Below, piece after piece: positions 22,788 to 43,031 of a stretch of 43,056 nt of DNA (position 1 is its first letter; the number at the start of each line of letters is the position of its first letter). A model generated the notes under the pieces. That model made no database searches. It was given only the letters and a program-made list of their open reading frames with translations, and was not told the DNA's origin. The DNA comes from Clostridia bacterium (GTDB lineage: Bacteria; Bacillota; Clostridia; UBA1212). The stretch lies in contig JAGDAX010000035.1 in NCBI GenBank assembly GCA_017848335.1, positions 1 through 43,056 on the forward strand, given 5' to 3'. The position numbers were made by a program, and so were the translations under genes.

Positions 22788-22836
22788 TTTCGGCGGGCCG
22801 AAGGGCGCCGGGCAGGATTATCGGCAGAGGCCGTGG

Positions 22837-23099
22837 GGCGCGTGAATTTTCCGGGGCGCGGGAAGATTTCGGGGCGCGGGAAGCGGCTCCGTGACGCTCA
22901 AGCTTCTCACAGGCGCGTGAATTTTCCGGGGCGCGTGAAGATTTCGGGGCGCGTGAAGCGGCTGCGTGACGCTCAAGCTTATCACAGGCGCGTGAATTTT
23001 TCGGGGCGCGTGAAGCGGCTCCGTGACGCTCAAGCTTCTCACAGGCGCGTGAATTTTCCGGGGCGCGGGAAGATTTCGGGGCGCGTGAAGCGGCTCCGG
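22837..23099 (+). repeat. Tandem array of 75/75/57-nt units
   Basis: Units start at 22837, 22912, 22987 and 23044. A full unit has two 18-nt subunits (GGCGCGTGAATTTTCCGG and GGCGCGKGAAGATTTCGG) and a 39-nt segment with GTGACGCTCAAGCTT; the third unit lacks one 18-nt subunit. All lengths are multiples of three, and the plus frame that runs into the P-II-like gene stays open. It fills the gap between the DUF1538 and first P-II-like genes; no other signal is visible there. Confidence 0.92.
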
Positions 23100-23174
23100 T
23101 TCAGCGAAACTATTGTCGGGCGCGCAGAACTCTTGTCGGGCCGCGAAATTCAGACGATTTTGGAGGTTGTTTTT

Positions 23175-27630: not shown

Positions 27631-29115
27631 ATGAAAAAATCAAGTATTCTCGTGATGCTTCTGGCTCTGGCCGTCATGCTGAGCGCGATACCCTTCGCGT
27701 CCTTTGCTGCCGACAACGATCCGGGAGCGGTTTTCGACTTTTACTATGAGAAAAATGCCACGACAGGCGCGTTCAAGAATATTACCGGCTGTAAGCTCGG
27801 CTGGGAGTCCGACGGATTCCTCAGAATCACGTCCGATGAGGATATTCTCGAGAAGGACGAAGGCATCGGCGACGTGAACTTCTACCTCGTGGACGCGGAA
27901 TACTGCGAGCTTGACTGCGACGAATATCCTTATTTCGCAGTCAACCTGAGGAACCCTTCCACGGCCACGCAGTTCGAGGCGCACTTCGGCACGGACGTCT
28001 ATCCGCTGTCGGCTTCCAACGTGTTCCACGCGGACATTGAGGCGGGCATGGACGGCTTCAAGACCTTCGTTTCGCACATTCCCTCGTCCAACGTGACCTG
28101 GGTCAACCTGCTTAACGCGCCGGGCGGTCTTACCGAGCAGGAGACGGGCTCGGCCACGGCGGAGGAGCTTGCTGAGGACGATTACACCTGGTCGGGCATT
28201 CTTACCGGGTTCAGGGTGGACGGCCTTTATTTCGGCGGACGTTCCGGACTTGACCAGGGCGGCAACGTGCTCGATATTGCCTGGATAGCATTCTTCAAGA
28301 CCGAAGAGGCTGCCCGCAATTTCCAGGGCCCCGATCACACGGTTGTTCCCGCAGACGAGACAGAAGCACCCGTGGACGACGATCCCCTGCCCTTCGGCAC
28401 GCTTATTTTCGACACGGACGACTACGACGACTTCTGGGGTAACCTCAACGGCGTTGACGACGTTTTCTTCAACGAGGAGGAGAAATGCTACGAGTTCGCG
28501 CTCTCCGACAGCAACGACCCCTTCGCAGCAATGCAGTTCGACAGCTACGTGGAGTACGGCGTTATTGACGACATTGACCTTGACGTTTACAAGGTCATGC
28601 AGCTGAAGGTCAAGATCGACCCCTCCGCAGGCTCGTCCGGCAACATCTACTTCACCACCGATGACGCTCCCGGCGCATACGCCGAGGCCAAGAACGTCGC
28701 CTTCCAGTACGAGAAGACCGACGAGTGGCAGATCGTCAATATCGACTTCTCCAGGCAGCGCACGTGGACGGATTATCTGTCTGTTACGAGATTTGACATG
28801 TTCTCGTCAGTTCATACCGAGACGTCCGTGAAGATCGCCTACGTCACCTTCTTTAAGACGATGTCCGCCGCCACGGCATTCGCGGAGGGCGGTTCTCAGT
28901 TCCCGGCTACACCTGAGCCGACTGCCACCCCCGAAGCAACTCCTACGCCCGAAGCCACCGCGACACCCGAGGCCACAGAGGCGTCCGGGGCGACAGCCGC
29001 TCCTGAGGCGACAGCTGAGCCGAAGCCCGGCAACGGCTGCAAGACCTTCATCGGCTCTGCTTCCGTTGTTATTATTTCACTCGCCGCTGTGGCAGTGTTC
29101 CTCAAGAAGCACTGA
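27631..29115 (+). CDS. Secreted protein 1 with Thr/Pro/Glu linker and Gly-Cys tail
   Basis: The 494-residue protein has a signal peptide (MKKSS, hydrophobic core, cleavage likely after SFA near residue 26) and two similar acidic beta-rich domains: both end with IAWIAFFKT/IAYVTFFKT and AA-F (about 28-235 and 255-420). A Thr/Pro/Glu/Ala linker (about 423-465) precedes a tail GCKTFIGS, a hydrophobic helix and KKH, with the cysteine at 470. The domain pair resembles carbohydrate-binding beta-sandwiches in general pattern but I cannot name a family. TAGGAGG supports the start. It probably sits at the cell surface, held by the tail. Confidence 0.8.
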   Translation: MKKSSILVMLLALAVMLSAIPFASFAADNDPGAVFDFYYEKNATTGAFKNITGCKLGWESDGFLRITSDEDILEKDEGIGDVNFYLVDAEYCELDCDEYPYFAVNLRNPSTATQFEAHFGTDVYPLSASNVFHADIEAGMDGFKTFVSHIPSSNVTWVNLLNAPGGLTEQETGSATAEELAEDDYTWSGILTGFRVDGLYFGGRSGLDQGGNVLDIAWIAFFKTEEAARNFQGPDHTVVPADETEAPVDDDPLPFGTLIFDTDDYDDFWGNLNGVDDVFFNEEEKCYEFALSDSNDPFAAMQFDSYVEYGVIDDIDLDVYKVMQLKVKIDPSAGSSGNIYFTTDDAPGAYAEAKNVAFQYEKTDEWQIVNIDFSRQRTWTDYLSVTRFDMFSSVHTETSVKIAYVTFFKTMSAATAFAEGGSQFPATPEPTATPEATPTPEATATPEATEASGATAAPEATAEPKPGNGCKTFIGSASVVIISLAAVAVFLKKH

Positions 29116-29291
29116 CCGGCGTCACGGGCCTGCCGCGACAGGTTTCCACGCGTCCGGTCTCGTTTTCCCGGCTTTTGACGCTTTAATGCATTGCTTTTGG
29201 CTCTTTAATCCATTATCATGCAGACTTGATTTCACGGACGAAATCACGCAAACTGACTATTTATTTCATTTTATTTTTAAGGAGAACGCTT

Positions 29292-30647
29292 ATGAAAAAA
29301 TTACTTTCCGTTTTAATCGTGGCTTCAATGCTCTTCACGTTCTTTGCAGTCTCTTCCTTTGCCGAGGAAGCGGAGAACCGCGTATTGGTGCCCATTTACG
29401 AGGGCGACGCCGCCCCCGGGCAGTGGCTCAACCAGTTCAATGCGGACGACGAGAATATCGCATACTCTTATTGCGCATTTAACGCCGCCGCTCCCTTCAC
29501 GGACATTGTGTTCCCGGTTATTTACGCGGGAACCTCCGCTGACGACAGGGACTGCGACTCCACCTTCGAGCTGTTCAATTACAAGACGACCATTGAGGAA
29601 GCGATGGCCTCCGAGCCCGCTTTCAAGGCCGAGATCCACTTTGACGGCGACATAGTCAACTACACCGTTCCGCTGGAGAAAGAAATGCCCGCGGGCCAGT
29701 ACGTGCTCAAGATCAGGGAGACCTCCGACAGAGGCCCCAACCCCGACGCAGGCCGCTACATGGTGCTCCCCGCCGCTTCTATCATCTATGCCAACGATAA
29801 GGTCGAATTCGGCGGCAAGAGCGTTTCCGGAGACTTCGCATTCGCGCTCAACTTCGTGAAGACTGAAGGCGTGACCGAATATTTCGCACCCTTCGCGTCG
29901 GAACAGGTTCCTGTGTTCAAGGATGACCGGGCGGTGACTATTGTCGCGCGCGACGGCAACAACCCTGTCGAGATGAACAACTTCGGCGACTTCAGTATCC
30001 TCACCGCTGAGATTCCCGAGGGCAAGGTTCTCCGCAACTTCATCTTCAAGAACGCCCCCACCTGGAACAACGTGGAGGACAACTCCGACCTCGGCTTTGA
30101 GGTTTATCTCTGGGATACAGATTACGACACCTCCTACAGAGGCAGACCCATCGTGTCCGGCACCGTGGAGGGCCACCTCGACAATCAGGACCTCATTCTC
30201 GATTTCGGCGCATGGCTGAAGGGCGGCGCAAGGTACCTCATCGTCTGCATGACCGAGAACGACGGCAAGGTCGGCTTCTGGGGCGGCAGCTCCATCTCCC
30301 AGGAAGGCTGGGAATTCTTTGCCGACGGCGAAGAGTCCGACCTCCTGCCCTCCTCACAGTACAAGCTGTCCACCTACACCGGCCCTGAGCTCACTCCGGA
30401 GCCCACTCCCGAGGAGACTCCCGAGCCCGAAGTAACCGAGGCGCCCGAAGTCACGGAAGAGGTTCCCGAAGAGCCCACAGATGCTCCCGAAGAGCCCACA
30501 CAGGCGCCCGCCGATGAGCCCACCAAGGAGCCCGAGGCCACCAAGAAGCCCGACGACAAGAAGGGCTGCGGCAGCTTCGTGGGCGGTGCGTTCGCAGCAA
30601 TGTCGCTCCTGGCAGTCGCCTCCTTCGTGCTGAAGAAGAAGGTCTGA
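29292..30647 (+). CDS. Secreted protein 2, paralogue with Gly-Cys tail
   Basis: The 451-residue protein has a signal peptide ending near SSFAEEA, an N-terminal beta-rich region (about 28-220), and a second region with FIFKNAPTWNNV and GFWGGSS shared with the third secreted protein. The Pro/Thr/Glu linker (about 365-420) leads to KKGCGSFVGG (cysteine 426), a hydrophobic helix and KKKV. The start is the ATG at 29292 with AAGGAGA; the longer frame lacks a signal peptide. It lies 176 bases after the first gene with no clear terminator between them, so it is probably coexpressed. No enzymatic motif is visible; the function is unknown. Confidence 0.8.
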   Translation: MKKLLSVLIVASMLFTFFAVSSFAEEAENRVLVPIYEGDAAPGQWLNQFNADDENIAYSYCAFNAAAPFTDIVFPVIYAGTSADDRDCDSTFELFNYKTTIEEAMASEPAFKAEIHFDGDIVNYTVPLEKEMPAGQYVLKIRETSDRGPNPDAGRYMVLPAASIIYANDKVEFGGKSVSGDFAFALNFVKTEGVTEYFAPFASEQVPVFKDDRAVTIVARDGNNPVEMNNFGDFSILTAEIPEGKVLRNFIFKNAPTWNNVEDNSDLGFEVYLWDTDYDTSYRGRPIVSGTVEGHLDNQDLILDFGAWLKGGARYLIVCMTENDGKVGFWGGSSISQEGWEFFADGEESDLLPSSQYKLSTYTGPELTPEPTPEETPEPEVTEAPEVTEEVPEEPTDAPEEPTQAPADEPTKEPEATKKPDDKKGCGSFVGGAFAAMSLLAVASFVLKKKV

Positions 30648-30782
30648 TCTGAGTATCTGGCGGCGCGGCCGCGCTCCCGCGAAGGGGTTTTTCCGGCCGC
30701 ACGGAGATTTTGACTGCGCAGCACGGCCGCACGGAGATTTTCCGGGTGTGCGGTTGATTTTTCCCGGATAATACGTTTTGGC

Positions 30783-30818
30783 CCGGCCGGCTCTCTTTTT
30801 CGGAGCCGGCCGGTTTTT
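30783..30818 (+). terminator. Rho-independent terminator
   Basis: A perfect 11-bp stem CCGGCCGGCTC/GAGCCGGCCGG with a 9-base loop is followed by TTTTT, 135 bases after secreted protein 2. Confidence 0.92.
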
Positions 30819-30825
30819 CGTTCCT

Positions 30826-30957
30826 TTAGGGCTTGCTCTGCTGCATTGGCGGCTCGTTTTTCTGCCTTTCGGCGCTTGCTTTGCCGCATTGACGGCTCGT
30901 TTTTTCTGCCTTTCGGCGCTTGCTTTGCCGCATTGACGGCTCGTTTTTCCGCTTTTG
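30826..30957 (+). repeat. 44-nt tandem repeat, three copies
   Basis: Units begin near 30827, 30870 and 30914 and share GCTTGCTYTGCYGCATTG and GGCTCGTTTTT. The rest of the gap to 31264 holds a promoter at 31164 and nothing else that I recognise. Confidence 0.85.
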
Positions 30958-31163
30958 GGCTCGGCTTGTTTTCGCGCTTTCGGTGCCTGCTCCTGCGCTT
31001 TGGGTGCAGCTTTTGTTTTTGTGCGGCAGCCGTTTTTCCCTTAGAGTCAAAGCGCGGAAACGTGCATAAGGCGCGTGTGAAGACGTGCAGCATGGATGCG
31101 GGTATGTTCGGCATGCTTACAGTGTAAGCGAGCGTGGAAAATGTGTGGAAAATTTATTTCTTG

Positions 31164-31192
31164 TTGCGAAGGGTTGACAATTCATTTATAAT
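31164..31192 (+). promoter_or_regulatory. Promoter TTGCGA-17-TATAAT
   Basis: TTGCGA (31164-31169) and TATAAT (31187-31192) are spaced by 17 bases, about 70 bases before the third secreted-protein gene. Confidence 0.6.
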
Positions 31193-31264
31193 CTTGTCAG
31201 GGGTTATTCGCGGGCAAATTGACGCACCTCGGACAGGCTCCTAAACGCAGAAAGAGGCTTATTT

Positions 31265-32734
31265 ATGCGCACGTTCAAAGGATGGCTTCGGCTGCCAAAA
31301 CTACTGCTTTGCATTGCAATCGCGGCAATTATGACAGTGCCCGCTGCTAACTTCAGCTTTTCCGTCGGCGACGGATTTTCGGCAGGAAGACGCATTTCAC
31401 AAGGGCGCGGTTCTTCCGCGCTTCAGGTTTATGCCGGGGAAGCGCCCGGACCCGTGACGCCTGTGCCCACGTCGCCGCCTACCGTGGACCCGAAAACGAC
31501 GCGGCAGCACCTTTACGTTGGCGAGCCCAAAATAGGCACGTGGCTGAGTATTTTTGAGGACGACGGCAGCTGCAAGGGCAACGTTTACGTGGTGTTCAAC
31601 GCCGCAAGGCCTTTTCACCAGATAGGCATTCCTGTTCTCTGGGCCGGCACGCCTGAGCACAACACGGACGTGATGCTTGAATTTCGCCTCTTCGCATTCT
31701 CGGAGGACGACGAGACTACGCTTCGCGGGGAGCCCCTTTTCGCGGACGAGCAGCACATTTCGCACGACAACGGCTACGGTATCATAATCCCAATGCAGGA
31801 ATTTTTCCCGGCGGGCCAGTATATTTTTTCCGTTAGTCAGACCAGCGGCGTCAGAGGCGAGGCCAGGCCCTATGCGGTCATTCCCAACGCTACCTCGGCT
31901 TATCCCGACCACTATCTCCGCTTTGGGGGCACCGGCGACGCACCGGTTTGCATCTACATCGACTTCCTGGAGGACGCTTCCGCGGACGGCAATTATCTGC
32001 TGCCCCTCAAGGGTTCCAAGGGCGGTTTGATCGTCAGCGACGAGCCGATTCCCATTATCGAGCACGGCGGACACGATCCTCACGCCATTTCGGACGACGA
32101 GGAGTTTGCGATGCTTTCGCCGCTGATTCCCGAGGACAAGATCCTGCAGAAGTTTATTTTCCTCAGCGCTCCCACCTGGAGCAACGTGGGGCCCGGCTCA
32201 AATCTGGGCTACACCGTCTACGAATGGACCGGCAATTACAAGAGCAGCCTCGAGGGCCCCGTGCTCGCTTCGGGCACGGTTGTGAACCATAAGGACAACG
32301 ATCAGCTGACCCTTAACCTGGGCATCAGCCTCACCGGCGGCAAACAGTATCTTATCGTCACGAAATCCGTGGGCACTTTTGCCATAGGCTTCTGGCAGGG
32401 CACCGACCGCCTGGACAGCGACGCACCCTGGGCCTTCTACGAGAACGGCCGCAAATCAAAGCTTCTGCCGAGCTGCGCATACGTGCTGGCAAGTATTGTC
32501 GATCCGGTGGACGACCCGTCCGGATCAGGCACCGGCGAAGGAACCCCCCTGCCGCCTGCCTCCGGAGGGCCTTCGGACGCAGCCACGCAGCCGCCCGCCA
32601 ATACTTCCGGCGGCTGCGGAAGCTCACTGTCTGCTGCGGCCGCCGCGCTGTGCCCGGCCGTTTTGCTTCCTGTTTTGAAAGGCTTCGCGTTTGTGCAGCG
32701 CGGCGCTTCTATGCGCAAAAAGGACAAAGGCTGA
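31265..32734 (+). CDS. Secreted protein 3, paralogue with modified Gly-Cys tail
   Basis: The 489-residue protein has an N-terminal membrane/signal segment (about 10-32), an extracellular region similar to secreted protein 2 (GEPKIGTWLS near 85, FIFLSAPTWSNV, GFWQGT), a Gly/Pro/Ser linker (about 408-448) and a tail SGGCGSS (cysteine 451) followed by a hydrophobic stretch and RKKDKG. The tail is longer than in the other two and has a second cysteine. AAAGAGG precedes the ATG. It has its own promoter. As with the other two, no catalytic motif is visible and the role is unknown; a ligand-binding surface protein is plausible. Confidence 0.78.
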   Translation: MRTFKGWLRLPKLLLCIAIAAIMTVPAANFSFSVGDGFSAGRRISQGRGSSALQVYAGEAPGPVTPVPTSPPTVDPKTTRQHLYVGEPKIGTWLSIFEDDGSCKGNVYVVFNAARPFHQIGIPVLWAGTPEHNTDVMLEFRLFAFSEDDETTLRGEPLFADEQHISHDNGYGIIIPMQEFFPAGQYIFSVSQTSGVRGEARPYAVIPNATSAYPDHYLRFGGTGDAPVCIYIDFLEDASADGNYLLPLKGSKGGLIVSDEPIPIIEHGGHDPHAISDDEEFAMLSPLIPEDKILQKFIFLSAPTWSNVGPGSNLGYTVYEWTGNYKSSLEGPVLASGTVVNHKDNDQLTLNLGISLTGGKQYLIVTKSVGTFAIGFWQGTDRLDSDAPWAFYENGRKSKLLPSCAYVLASIVDPVDDPSGSGTGEGTPLPPASGGPSDAATQPPANTSGGCGSSLSAAAAALCPAVLLPVLKGFAFVQRGASMRKKDKG

Positions 32735-32818
32735 ACGGCAGCGCAGGACAGCTCGTCCCGGTTTTAAGCCGGTTTTCAGGGCGGCTTTTTCGCGGCCTTC
32801 AGGAGGCTTTTCGAGCCG

Positions 32819-32890
32819 GATTCAGACGAGGCTTTCGAGCTTGATTCAGACGAAGCTTTCAGGCTTGATTCAGACGATAGTTTCGGGCAG
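32819..32890 (+). repeat. 24-nt tandem repeat, three copies
   Basis: GATTCAGACGA recurs at 32819, 32843 and 32867 with AGCTTTC-type segments between. It lies just after secreted protein 3. Confidence 0.85.
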
Positions 32891-33012: not shown

Positions 33013-33564
33013 TTTCCCACATTTTGTGGATTTCTTCCCACATTTTCACAAACGAAAGCCACAAAAAAAACGAAAAACTGCGCGCCGGAAATTTCACATT
33101 GTGGGAAACTCCGAAAAAAGGGTGTTTGAAGGGCGCCGTGGCCGAGTTACCCACAATTTCCCCGAAATTACCCACATTTTCGGCGGAGAAACCCACGGTA
33201 ATCAGCAAGTTTCCCACCATTTTTTGTAAGTTTTGTTCGTGTTTCATTTCATGTCGTTTGGGCTGTTTTTTTCAAAAATCGCTTTTCCCACCTTCGGAAG
33301 CATACTCCAAATACCGCCGGACACCCGAAATAGCAGTTTTTGCCTTTTTTTCGGCACATTCAATGTGGGAAACCTTTTGGGGGCAGATTTACCCACATTG
33401 ACGCGGCCTGAGAATGTGGGAAACTCGCTCTTTTCCCACATTTTTATATCAAATTCGAGGGGTCCCTGTTTTTCAAAGTTGCTCGAGTCCGATTTTTTGC
33501 AGTTTTTTGTGGGTAATTTCCGGGTTACCCACATTTTCGGGACCGAAAAGCCGCTTTTCCCACC
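33013..33564. promoter_or_regulatory. Cluster of TTWCCCACM sites on both strands
   Basis: About 14 copies of the 9-mer TTTCCCACA, TTACCCACA or TTTCCCACC occur in 550 bases. Plus-strand sites start at 33013, 33034 (CTTCCCACA), 33147, 33168, 33210, 33284, 33389, 33432, 33525 and 33556; minus-strand sites occupy 33100-33108, 33364-33372, 33415-33423 and 33508-33516. Two inverted pairs (33415/33432 and 33508/33525) have the same 8-base spacer and matching half sites. The area is AT-richer than the genes around it, and no gene is supported in it. The 9-mer resembles a DnaA box (TTATNCACA) with C at position 4, but binding by DnaA is only a guess. Confidence 0.6.
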
Positions 33565-33730
33565 GTTTTTCGGTATTCTCGCGAACGGAGAGCGCCTTCG
33601 AAACACCCTTTCAAAGCAGCCTCTCGAAAAACCGTGTTTTGATCCTCAAAAGGCTTTTGCGGAATGCGTATGAGAATCACCCGAAGACCTCGATGCGTCG
33701 CAAACCTCGCCGCTAAACCGGACGCGAAAA

Positions 33731-33820
33731 GCTTGCGGCGCTCCGCGGATCTCGCCGCGAGATCTGCCGTCGGGAGCTTGCGGCGCTCCGCGAATCTCGA
33801 CGCGGATCTCACCTCTAAAT
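33731..33820 (+). repeat. 45-nt tandem repeat, two copies
   Basis: GCTTGCGGCGCTCCGCG starts at 33731 and again at 33776, followed each time by RATCTCGMCGCG. It lies between the TTWCCCACM cluster and the xpt promoter. Confidence 0.75.
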
Positions 33821-33901
33821 CTGACGCGAAGATCCCCGGGATGCGGCCCGTTTTTTTGCTGATTTTCGCGGTATTTTTTACTGATTTTTTCCAATTTTCG
33901 G

Positions 33902-33931
33902 TTGCGTTTTGGCGCCCGTTTGTGGTAGAAT
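33902..33931 (+). promoter_or_regulatory. xpt promoter with extended -10
   Basis: TGGTAGAAT gives an extended -10 box (33924-33931... -10 TAGAAT at 33926-33931) with TTGCGT 18 bases upstream. The leader to the TTG start is only about 35 bases, so there is no room for a purine riboswitch. Confidence 0.55.
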
Positions 33932-33969
33932 TTATGTGTATTTCTTTTCGCGGAAAGAAGGTGAACTCG

Positions 33970-34542
33970 TTGCGGCTTTTGGAAGAGAAAATCCTCACAG
34001 AGGGGAAGATTTTCCCCGGTGACGTACTCAAGGTGGACTCCTTCCTGAACCACCAGCTTGACACGGAGCTGCTGGATGCTGTCGGCGCAGAGATCGCCTC
34101 TCTTTACAAGGACTCGGGCGTTACGAAGGTTCTCACGATGGAGGCCAGCGGCATTGCCATAGCCTGCTTCGTGGCCCGCGAGCTGCATTGTCCCGCATTG
34201 TTTGCCAAAAAATCCAAGACCGCCAATATTTCGGATAATTTCTGGAGCTCCCCGGCCCATTCATACACCCACGGCAACAACTACACAATGGTAGTTTCCC
34301 GTGAATATCTCGGCAGCGACGACGTCATCCTGATAGTGGACGATTTTCTGGCCAGCGGCAACGCGTTAACGGCGCTTCTCAATATCTGCCGGCAGGCGGG
34401 CGCCACCGTCGTGGGCGCGGGAATTGCCATCGAGAAGAAATACCAGGGCGGCGGGGATGCTCTTCGCGCGGAAGGTCTGCGCGTCGACTCCATGGCCACC
34501 ATTGCATCAATGAGTTCTGAGGACGGTATAGTCTTCTGCTGA
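33970..34542 (+). CDS. xpt: Xanthine phosphoribosyltransferase
   Basis: The 190-residue protein matches Xpt in length and sequence: it starts RLLEEKILTEGKIFPGDVLK, has VDSFLNHQLD and the PRPP-binding loop LIVDDFLASGNAL (about 121-133, D124-D125), and KKYQGGG near the C-terminus. It converts xanthine and PRPP to XMP in the cytoplasm for purine salvage. The start is TTG at 33970, eight bases after AGAAGG; the longer open frame translates repeats. The purine-type transporter genes follow 258 bases downstream on the same strand, which fits a salvage unit. Confidence 0.93.
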   Translation: MRLLEEKILTEGKIFPGDVLKVDSFLNHQLDTELLDAVGAEIASLYKDSGVTKVLTMEASGIAIACFVARELHCPALFAKKSKTANISDNFWSSPAHSYTHGNNYTMVVSREYLGSDDVILIVDDFLASGNALTALLNICRQAGATVVGAGIAIEKKYQGGGDALRAEGLRVDSMATIASMSSEDGIVFC

Positions 34543-35997: not shown

Positions 35998-36010
35998 TCT
36001 TTGCGAAATT

Positions 36011-36050
36011 ATACAGGAAGGGCAGGCGCAACACCCTGCCTTCCCTGTAT
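36011..36050 (+). terminator. Hairpin after the binding-protein gene, possible attenuator
   Basis: ATACAGG-A-AGGGCAGG pairs with CCTGCC-TT-CCCTGTAT, with a bulge, 13 bases after the stop. No T-run follows. Such hairpins often protect the binding-protein mRNA or reduce readthrough into the ATPase gene. Confidence 0.55.
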
Positions 36051-36093
36051 CAGTGAGGACGGCTCTGCCGGTCAAAGGGATTTAAGGGAGCTC

Positions 36094-36246
36094 CGGACGC
36101 TTCGGGCGCTTCGGGCGCTTTGGGCGCTCTGGGCGCTTTGGGAGCTCTGGGCGCTCTGGGCGCTTTGGGCGCTCTGGGCGCTCTGGGCGCTTTGGGAGCT
36201 CTGGGCGCTCTGGGCGCTTTGGGAGCTTTGGACGCTTCGGGCGCGG
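36094..36246 (+). repeat. 9-nt tandem repeat, 17 units
   Basis: Seventeen units of YGGGCGCTY (with GGAGCTC and GGACGCTT variants) run from 36094 to 36246 without a slip. In one plus frame it reads as Trp-Ala-Leu repeats, but there is no ribosome site and no signal that it is translated. It lies inside the transporter operon. Confidence 0.95.
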
Positions 36247-36353
36247 GTCATGGCGCGTTTTGGCATATTTTGGCCGAAGCATCGGCGTCACCCTCCCTGA
36301 TAAGCCTGCGCTATCCCTTCCGATAAGCCCCGGCCGCAGGAACCGCCTCCCTT

Positions 36354-41169: not shown

Positions 41170-41435
41170 GTGAATCGGCCGCCGGCGGGTGATTCGGCGG
41201 CCTGAGATCGAATCCGATACCATCGGCTGCCGGCGGTCGAGTCGGATAACCTGTGATTGACCCCGATACCATCGGCCGCAGGCGGTCGTCTCCGCGGCCG
41301 GAGATCGAATCCGATACCATCGGCCGCCGGCGGTCGTCTCCGCGGCCGGAGATTGACCCCGATACCATCGGCTGCCGGCGGTCGTCTCCGCGGCCGGAGA
41401 TTGATCCCGATACCATCGGCTGCCGTAAATTGACT
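41170..41435. repeat. 48-nt tandem repeat, about 4.5 copies
   Basis: GATACCATCGGC recurs at 41216, 41265, 41313, 41361 and 41409 (spacing 49, 48, 48, 48). Each unit also holds GGCGGTCGTCTCCGCGG and the palindromic core CCGCGGCCGG. Because 48 is a multiple of three, frames stay open on both strands (16-residue periods), but no ribosome site supports translation. It fills the gap between the convergent permease and DUF1846 genes. Confidence 0.92.
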
Positions 41436-41546
41436 CGGTTTTCGCAGCCTGCAGATGGCTGTCTCCTGCGCTCGCGGCCCGAAGACGATCACGGAGCGGG
41501 CCGCTCGCCGTCCGCCGCGGGGATTATATTGTCGCGGTCATCGCGT

Positions 41547-43031
41547 TTAATTTGCGTGGTAGAGCTTCTTGGTCTGGTAATGCGGCTCGCATGTCATTGT
41601 CAGGCCAAGCTTCGACATCACGTTGTCGTCAACGTGGGACAGGATGACCGTGGCATGGGCGTCGCAGCCCCTGAGCCTCGGCAGCATTTCGAGGGCCAGC
41701 GCCGCGTCCTTGTTGGTAATCGCGCTAATCGACAGCGCAATCAGCACCTCGTCGGTGTGAAGCCGCGGATTCCGGTTGCCCATGTATTTGGTCTTGAGCT
41801 GCTGCACGGGCTCGATGACCTCCTTGGGGATGATCTTGGTGTCGTGGTCGATGCCCGCAAGCGTCTTGATCGCGTTAATAAGAGCCGCCGCCGACGCACC
41901 CAGCAGGGATGAAGTCTTGCCGGTGATGACCTGCCCGTCAGGAAGCTCGATGGCCACCGCAGGCGCACCGGTCTCCGCCGCACGACCAACCGCCGCGCCG
42001 ATCACAGGACGTTCGCCCGCGTCAATCTGCAGCTTCGCCATGATCGTCTCGATTTTTTCGCTCTCGTTCTTGCCCGCGAAGCCCTGCCTGATGGCGCACA
42101 GGGTCTTGTAGCGCCGCCGGATGATCTCGCGCTTGGCCGCCGCCGAAACCACGCCGTCATCGACAATGCAAAAGCCCGCCATATTCACGCCCATGTCCGT
42201 CGGACTCTTGTAGGGCGACTCGCCCATAATGCCCGACAATATCGCGTTAAGCACCGGGAAGATCTCAATGTCGCGGTTGTAATTGATGCACACCTCGCCG
42301 TAATTTTCCAGATGGAACGGGTCGATCATATTCACGTCGTTGAGGTCCGCCGTGGCCGCCTCGTAAGCCAGATTCACGGGGTGGTTGAGGGGCAGATTCC
42401 AGATCGGGAAGGTCTCGAATTTTGCATAGCCCGCCTTGATGCCTCGCTGCTGCTCGCAGTAAAGCTGTGAAAGGCAGGTCGCCATCTTGCCGCTCCCGGG
42501 GCCCGGCGCAGTCACGACCACCAATTGTCGCGTCGTCTCAATGTACTCGTTTTTTCCAAAGCCGTTGTCGCTGAGAATATTCGCCACGTTGTTCGGGTAG
42601 CCCTCGATCGGAAAATGCCTGAAGACCCTGACGCCCAGCGTCTTCAGCCGCTCGATAAACTTGTCCGCGTTGGTCTGGCCGGCATACTGCGTGATGACCA
42701 CGGAGCCCACGTACAGGCCCGCGTCCCTGAACGCATCAATAAGCCGCAGCGTGTCAAGGTCATACGTAATGTCAAGGTCGCCGCGCTTCTTGCTCTTCTC
42801 GATGGCGTCCGCGTTAATGACAATAACGATCTCCGCCTCTTCCTTCATGCTGAGGAGCATTCTCAGCTTCGAGTCCGGCATAAACCCGGGAAGAACCCTC
42901 GACGCATGAAAATCATCAAAAAGCTTGCCGCCGAACTCAAGGTAGAGCTTGCCGCCGAACAAGTCAATCCGCTGGCGGATTTTCTCGCTCTGAAGCCTTG
43001 TATACTTCTCGCTGTCAAAACCAATTTTCAT
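41547..43031 (-). CDS. DUF1846 domain protein
   Basis: The 494-residue protein is a full-length DUF1846 (UPF0371) member: it opens KIGFDSEKYTRLQSEKI, carries TAPGPGSGK (174-182), a P-loop-like glycine-rich turn, YAKFETFPIWNLPLNHPVN, and HTDEVLIALSISA near the end. Solved members have a Rossmann-like fold but no established reaction, so no function is assigned. GGAGG lies eight bases before the ATG. It is transcribed towards the transporter operon, from which it is separated by the 48-nt array; its promoter lies outside the window. Confidence 0.92.
   Translation of the reverse strand: MKIGFDSEKYTRLQSEKIRQRIDLFGGKLYLEFGGKLFDDFHASRVLPGFMPDSKLRMLLSMKEEAEIVIVINADAIEKSKKRGDLDITYDLDTLRLIDAFRDAGLYVGSVVITQYAGQTNADKFIERLKTLGVRVFRHFPIEGYPNNVANILSDNGFGKNEYIETTRQLVVVTAPGPGSGKMATCLSQLYCEQQRGIKAGYAKFETFPIWNLPLNHPVNLAYEAATADLNDVNMIDPFHLENYGEVCINYNRDIEIFPVLNAILSGIMGESPYKSPTDMGVNMAGFCIVDDGVVSAAAKREIIRRRYKTLCAIRQGFAGKNESEKIETIMAKLQIDAGERPVIGAAVGRAAETGAPAVAIELPDGQVITGKTSSLLGASAAALINAIKTLAGIDHDTKIIPKEVIEPVQQLKTKYMGNRNPRLHTDEVLIALSISAITNKDAALALEMLPRLRGCDAHATVILSHVDDNVMSKLGLTMTCEPHYQTKKLYHAN

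What the first reader, a model, noticed from the sequence alone, without database searches (positions are those of the whole stretch)
33013..33564. Dense two-strand cluster of TTWCCCACM 9-mers upstream of xpt
About 14 sites in 550 bases, including two inverted pairs with exactly 8 bases between matching half sites and three pairs of neighbours at 21, 21 and 42 bases, is far above chance. The area is gene-free and AT-richer. The 9-mer is one to two changes from the DnaA box, so an origin, a DnaA-titration site or a cluster for another DNA-binding protein are candidates. Gene strand bias does not switch here as it would at an origin, which speaks for a non-origin cluster.
Basis: partly seen in the sequence, partly recalled or inferred. 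Interest (0 to 1): 0.8.

Follow-up and report, generated by a model that had tools for sequence, protein, structure and literature searches.

The report
Accessory DnaA-box array, altered box sequence
A gene-free stretch packed with binding sites for DnaA, the protein that starts chromosome copying; in this family of rumen-type Clostridia the DnaA binding word has changed together with the DNA-reading part of DnaA itself, and the stretch is a conserved side array (probably a DnaA sink or regulator), not the replication origin.

Summary
The cluster is real: 13 exact TTWCCCACM sites plus one near match in 552 bp, and it is the only cluster in the assembly. The motif is the family's DnaA box. In sister genera the dnaA-dnaN spacer carries NNNCCCACA boxes next to a DnaA-trio-like run. 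GC skew flips there in G007, and weakly in two genomes of the window's genus. In 17 genomes of other families of the order the same spacer has ordinary TTWTNCACA boxes. DnaA helix-5 residues at known base-contact positions (432, 433, 439) differ only where the boxes differ. The window's array is not the origin: it shows no skew flip, no DnaA-trio-like run and no dnaA, and clear or likely origins lie elsewhere in relatives. All nine held genomes of the family have such an accessory array. In the window's genus it lies beside one conserved gene, with same-strand sites at 21-bp steps; in two other genera it lies upstream of spo0A. Best reading: an accessory DnaA-box cluster, comparable to B. subtilis DnaA-box clusters or E. 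coli datA, that binds DnaA cooperatively and tunes its availability. Binding and function are inferred, not measured. The window's own dnaA is missing from its bin, so its DnaA sequence comes from congeners.

The parts
33013..33564 (.). accessory DnaA-box array: 13 exact TTWCCCACM, one CTTCCCACA and one AAACCCACG
33013..33021 (+). box TTTCCCACA
33034..33042 (+). box CTTCCCACA, 21 bp after the previous one
33100..33108 (-). box TTTCCCACA
33147..33218 (+). run of four CCCAC cores at exact 21-bp steps (boxes 33147, 33168, 33189, 33210)
33284..33292 (+). box TTTCCCACC
33364..33397 (.). inverted pair of boxes, 16 bp between
33415..33440 (.). inverted pair TGTGGGAAA-8-TTTCCCACA
33508..33533 (.). inverted pair TGTGGGTAA-8-TTACCCACA
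33556..33564 (+). box TTTCCCACC
31265..32734 (+). conserved neighbour (secreted-type protein, no Pfam match); homologues flank the array in G001-G005 (G003 included)
33973..34542 (+). xpt, phosphoribosyltransferase; adjacent here and in G006, not in G002

Best explanation
The stretch is an accessory array of DnaA boxes in a family whose DnaA box has changed from TTWTNCACA to TTWCCCACA (position 4 T to C). DnaA, with a matching changed recognition helix, binds the array cooperatively; same-strand boxes sit two helical turns (21 bp) apart and so face the same side of the DNA. The array binds DnaA away from the origin and so tunes how much is free to start replication, and where it abuts spo0A (two sister genera) it may also couple spo0A transcription to replication. 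Shown here: the array, its conservation, its register, the box change and the DnaA covariation. Inferred: DnaA binding, titration or inactivation, and any regulation.
For: Same box word in the dnaA-dnaN spacer of G007/G008 (8 and 10 CCCACA), in G008 directly beside CTACTACTACTACTA (a DnaA-trio run) and an AT-rich stretch; GC skew flips there in G007 (negative in every 10-kb bin to 150 kb, mostly positive after 160 kb). 17 non-family genomes of the order: TTWTNCACA 2-7, CCCACA 0-1; seven family members: CCCACA 2-10, TCCACA 0-2. In 80 DnaA loci, C-type boxes outnumber T-type only with L/I/M432 plus N/H433 plus D/G439; these positions are base-contact residues (PMC7561715, PMC5043019; mapped on 1j1v). 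Arrays in all nine held family genomes. 21-bp steps: G000 4, G002 3, G003 3, G004 11 against 0.05-0.6 expected. Helical phasing P 0.0005 in the window. No skew flip and no trio at the array.
Against: No binding data. The window's own dnaA is not in the assembly. The box change is one evolutionary event in one small clade, so covariation is suggestive rather than replicated. In the window's genus the dnaA-dnaN spacer has only 2-4 CCCACA boxes, fewer than the array. The array's distance from the origin in the window's genus is unknown. G006's array shows no 21-bp steps and no significant phasing.
Confidence: 0.78

Rival explanations
1. The array is the chromosomal origin itself, moved away from dnaA in this genus.
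For: It holds more exact boxes than the dnaA-dnaN spacer of its own genus; the assembly has no dnaA-dnaN to compare with.
Against: Skew changes sign near dnaA in congeners G005 and G002 (weakly) and clearly in G007, not at the arrays; dnaA-dnaN spacers keep boxes followed by a trio-like CTCTATTAATACAACTAT; no trio-like run in the window or G006 arrays. No gene-strand switch at the array.
Confidence: 0.07
2. The array mainly controls transcription of a neighbour (spo0A in two genera, xpt or the 31265 gene here) through DnaA.
For: Arrays lie upstream of spo0A in G006, G007 and G008, with a 0A-box match (TTTGTCGAA) inside the G006 array.
Against: In the window's genus the array is kept without a full-length spo0A; xpt is not beside it in G002; the conserved neighbour in that genus points into the array, so its promoter is on the far side.
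Confidence: 0.2
3. The sites belong to another DNA-binding protein that also binds near dnaA.
For: No binding data exist; the array's 21-bp spacing is unlike the 2-3 bp gaps preferred by E. coli DnaA (PMC11317965).
Against: In G007/G008 these sites largely replace ordinary boxes in the origin spacer beside the trio, and the DnaA recognition helix changes in step.
Confidence: 0.06
4. Chance or a decayed repeat element.
For: Short direct and inverted repeats pair up across the region.
Against: Expected 0.014 sites in 552 bp; no tandem unit carries the boxes; only the boxes and their register recur between species.
Confidence: 0.01

Closest known systems
Bacillus subtilis DnaA-box clusters outside oriC (Okumura 2012; known here only as a citation in PMC4447404, otherwise from memory)
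   Same: Cluster of DnaA boxes outside the dnaA-dnaN origin; in G007 about 11 kb from it
   Different: Box word TTWCCCACA instead of TTWTNCACA; 21-bp register in the window's genus; neighbour genes differ
Escherichia coli datA (PMC5835720)
   Same: Non-origin cluster of DnaA boxes
   Different: datA needs IHF and a specific box set for DnaA-ATP hydrolysis; no IHF site was looked for and the box word and spacing differ
oriC dnaA-dnaN spacer of G007/G008
   Same: Same box word, both strands, dense
   Different: It has a DnaA-trio run, an AT-rich stretch, a GC-skew switch (G007) and dnaA/dnaN; the array has none of these

Membership tests
Accessory DnaA-box cluster | several boxes of the host's own DnaA-box type close together outside oriC | tested here: met
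   the box type is taken from relatives, since the window's own dnaA is missing
Accessory DnaA-box cluster | bound by DnaA in vivo or in vitro | not testable with these tools
   no experiments possible
Accessory DnaA-box cluster | conserved position among related species | tested here: met
   syntenic in G000-G005 beside one gene family; upstream of spo0A in G006-G008
oriC | GC-skew sign change at the site | tested here: not met
   window, G006, G007 array; only short flanks on one side in the window and G006
oriC | DnaA-trio next to boxes | tested here: not met
   none in window or G006 array; present in G002, G004, G007, G008 dnaA-dnaN spacers by the same scan
datA | IHF site between boxes and stimulation of DnaA-ATP hydrolysis | not tested
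   no IHF scan was made; hydrolysis needs an assay

The most novel reading that the evidence does not exclude
A natural switch of DnaA-box specificity (T4 to C with L/I/M432, N/H433, D/G439) in one bacterial family, with a dedicated array in which DnaA assembles in a two-turn (21-bp) register that I have not seen described for DnaA, acting as a new kind of DnaA-controlling element.
Probability: 0.35. Interest if true: 0.75.

Novelty: new variant of a known kind. Interest (0 to 1): 0.62.

Why it matters
DnaA and its box are among the most conserved protein-DNA pairs in bacteria, and origins are commonly sought by TTWTNCACA-like boxes. A clade in which both partners changed together gives a testable case of how an essential specificity can shift, warns that searches for the standard box will miss such origins, and offers a regularly spaced DnaA array for studying cooperative binding and initiator titration.

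Tried and rejected
One search covered 391 genomes with the wrong pattern (a direct repeat with an 8-bp gap, absent even from the window), so its zero says nothing. Absence of dnaA in G000 and G006 first looked like a link with the array, but dnaN is missing too, so it is a bin gap. Residue 433 alone, or L432 alone, does not predict the box: K432-N433 and K432-H433 families and two L432-D433 Solobacterium loci keep TCCACA boxes. One search used a faulty regular expression and was replaced; misread the helix in some loci. xpt as the array's partner was dropped after G002. Phasing was tested on nine clusters (four with P below 0.05, one of them, G005, nearly identical to G001). The 21-bp test was suggested by the window, so only the other genomes are independent; G001 gives P 0.034 and G002 0.012. 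One literature search for the B. subtilis clusters found nothing, and the Okumura paper is not held. A text search for TTTCCCACA or TTACCCACA with DnaA found no paper on such boxes. No Rfam match in the window.

Full report
Observation. The 9-mer TTWCCCACM occurs 14 times in the window, 13 of them at 33013-33564; shuffles give 0.81. One more site has a single change. Genome-wide there are 74 sites in 2.41 Mb and no second cluster.

Which protein. dnaA was searched in 28 relatives. In G007 and G008, same family but another genus, the dnaA-dnaN spacer carries 8 and 10 CCCACA boxes of the window's type. In G008 the last two (TTTCCCACATAACCCACAG) are followed by CTACTACTACTACTA, the reverse complement of a DnaA-trio run, and an AT-rich stretch. 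GC skew over 260 kb of G007 is negative in every 10-kb bin up to 150 kb and mostly positive after 160 kb, with dnaA at 154-155 kb. So in this family the origin uses CCCACA boxes. The 17 genomes of other families of the order have TTWTNCACA there and no TTWCCCACA.

DnaA covaries. Mapped on the E. coli structure 1j1v, residues 432/433/439 are R-or-K, mostly D, and Y/H/T in the other families of the order, but I-H-G in G007/G008 and L-N-D or M-N-D in the window's genus; 423 is Q instead of P in that genus. These are among the positions named as base-contacting (PMC7561715, PMC5043019). Across 80 DnaA loci, C-type boxes outnumber T-type only with these combinations; L432 with D433, or N/H433 with K432, keeps T-type boxes. 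One of the four L-N-D loci (G002) has only a few boxes of either type and no majority. It is a single clade, so this is one event. A second dnaA in G003 with an ordinary helix is set aside as a possible contaminant.

Not the origin. The window and G006 show no skew flip at the array, and G007's array lies 11 kb from the flip. Congeners G005 and G002 change skew sign near dnaA, weakly, and members of the genus keep boxes plus a trio-like stretch (CTCTATTAATACAACTAT in G001 and G005) in the dnaA-dnaN spacer. The window and G006 arrays have no such run. The window's own dnaA and dnaN are both missing from its bin, so that comparison could not be made in the same genome.

Conservation. Four other genomes of the window's genus have one main array of exact boxes away from dnaA: G001 C55, G002 C83, G004 C14, G005 C140, all 3' of a homologue of the window gene 31265-32734. 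G003 has arrays with a drifted word, AAACCCACM, one beside the same gene homologue. G006 has it between xpt and a Spo0A_C protein, G007 upstream of spo0A, and G008 has the same four-box array just upstream of its spo0A. Four congeners' contigs end within about 0.2-0.6 kb of the array, and in G001, G004 and G005 another contig ends 1-1.6 kb upstream of xpt; whether they join was not shown, and in G004 and G005 the gene just upstream of xpt is a tuf-like gene instead. In G002 and G003 xpt is not directly beside the array, so xpt is not the constant partner.

Register. Same-strand cores at 21 bp: window 4, G001 2, G002 3, G003 3, G004 11, against 0.05-0.6 for random placement. Best helical period in the window is 10.45 bp, P 0.0005 allowing for the choice of period; G001 and G004 0.0025; G002, G006 and the origin spacers not significant.

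Mechanism. Boxes on one face of the helix suit cooperative DnaA binding; with no unwinding element found, the likely outcome is sequestration or nucleotide-state control of DnaA, as at B. subtilis DnaA-box clusters or E. coli datA (PMC5835720). Upstream of spo0A in two genera it may also act on that promoter. No binding was measured.

Names. Public records whose DnaA-contig lengths equal those of G001-G005, G007 and G008 are metagenome bins titled Mageeibacillus sp. UBA1243 and UBA1212, Clostridia bacterium RGIG10266, RGIG3519 and RGIG4242, uncultured Ruminococcus RUG12790 and Oscillospiraceae SIG423, several from rumen or gut of ruminants.

Noticed in passing
L127-L132 (G001-G005 and G000): The window's genus has short proteins matching only the Spo0A C-terminal domain (open frames 136-167 aa) and no full-length Spo0A hit; G006-G008 have a longer one.
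   Followed up: partly
L067 6371: A perfect 0A-box match TTTGTCGAA lies inside the DnaA-box array upstream of the spo0A-like gene of G006.
   Followed up: partly
window 27631-32734: Three neighbouring secreted-type genes, two of them without a Pfam match (the first not tested); the second and third are related to each other, and homologues sit in the same order in congeners.
   Followed up: partly
L086, L137 (G003 contig 25): A second dnaA-dnaN pair with an ordinary RDHTT helix in G003, perhaps a contaminant or a plasmid.
   Followed up: no
window 32803-32888 and 33699-33845: Tandem 24-bp and 45-bp repeats flank the array on both sides.
   Followed up: no
L096, L101, L102, L103: In four congeners' assemblies the contig ends just beyond the array.
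   Followed up: partly
window 36001-36300, 41253-41700, 22833-23100: ORFs made of short repeated peptide units (LWALWELW, RPEIDPDTIG, RVNFPGRGKISGR).
   Followed up: no
window 33565-33972: No riboswitch or other Rfam family upstream of xpt.
   Followed up: yes
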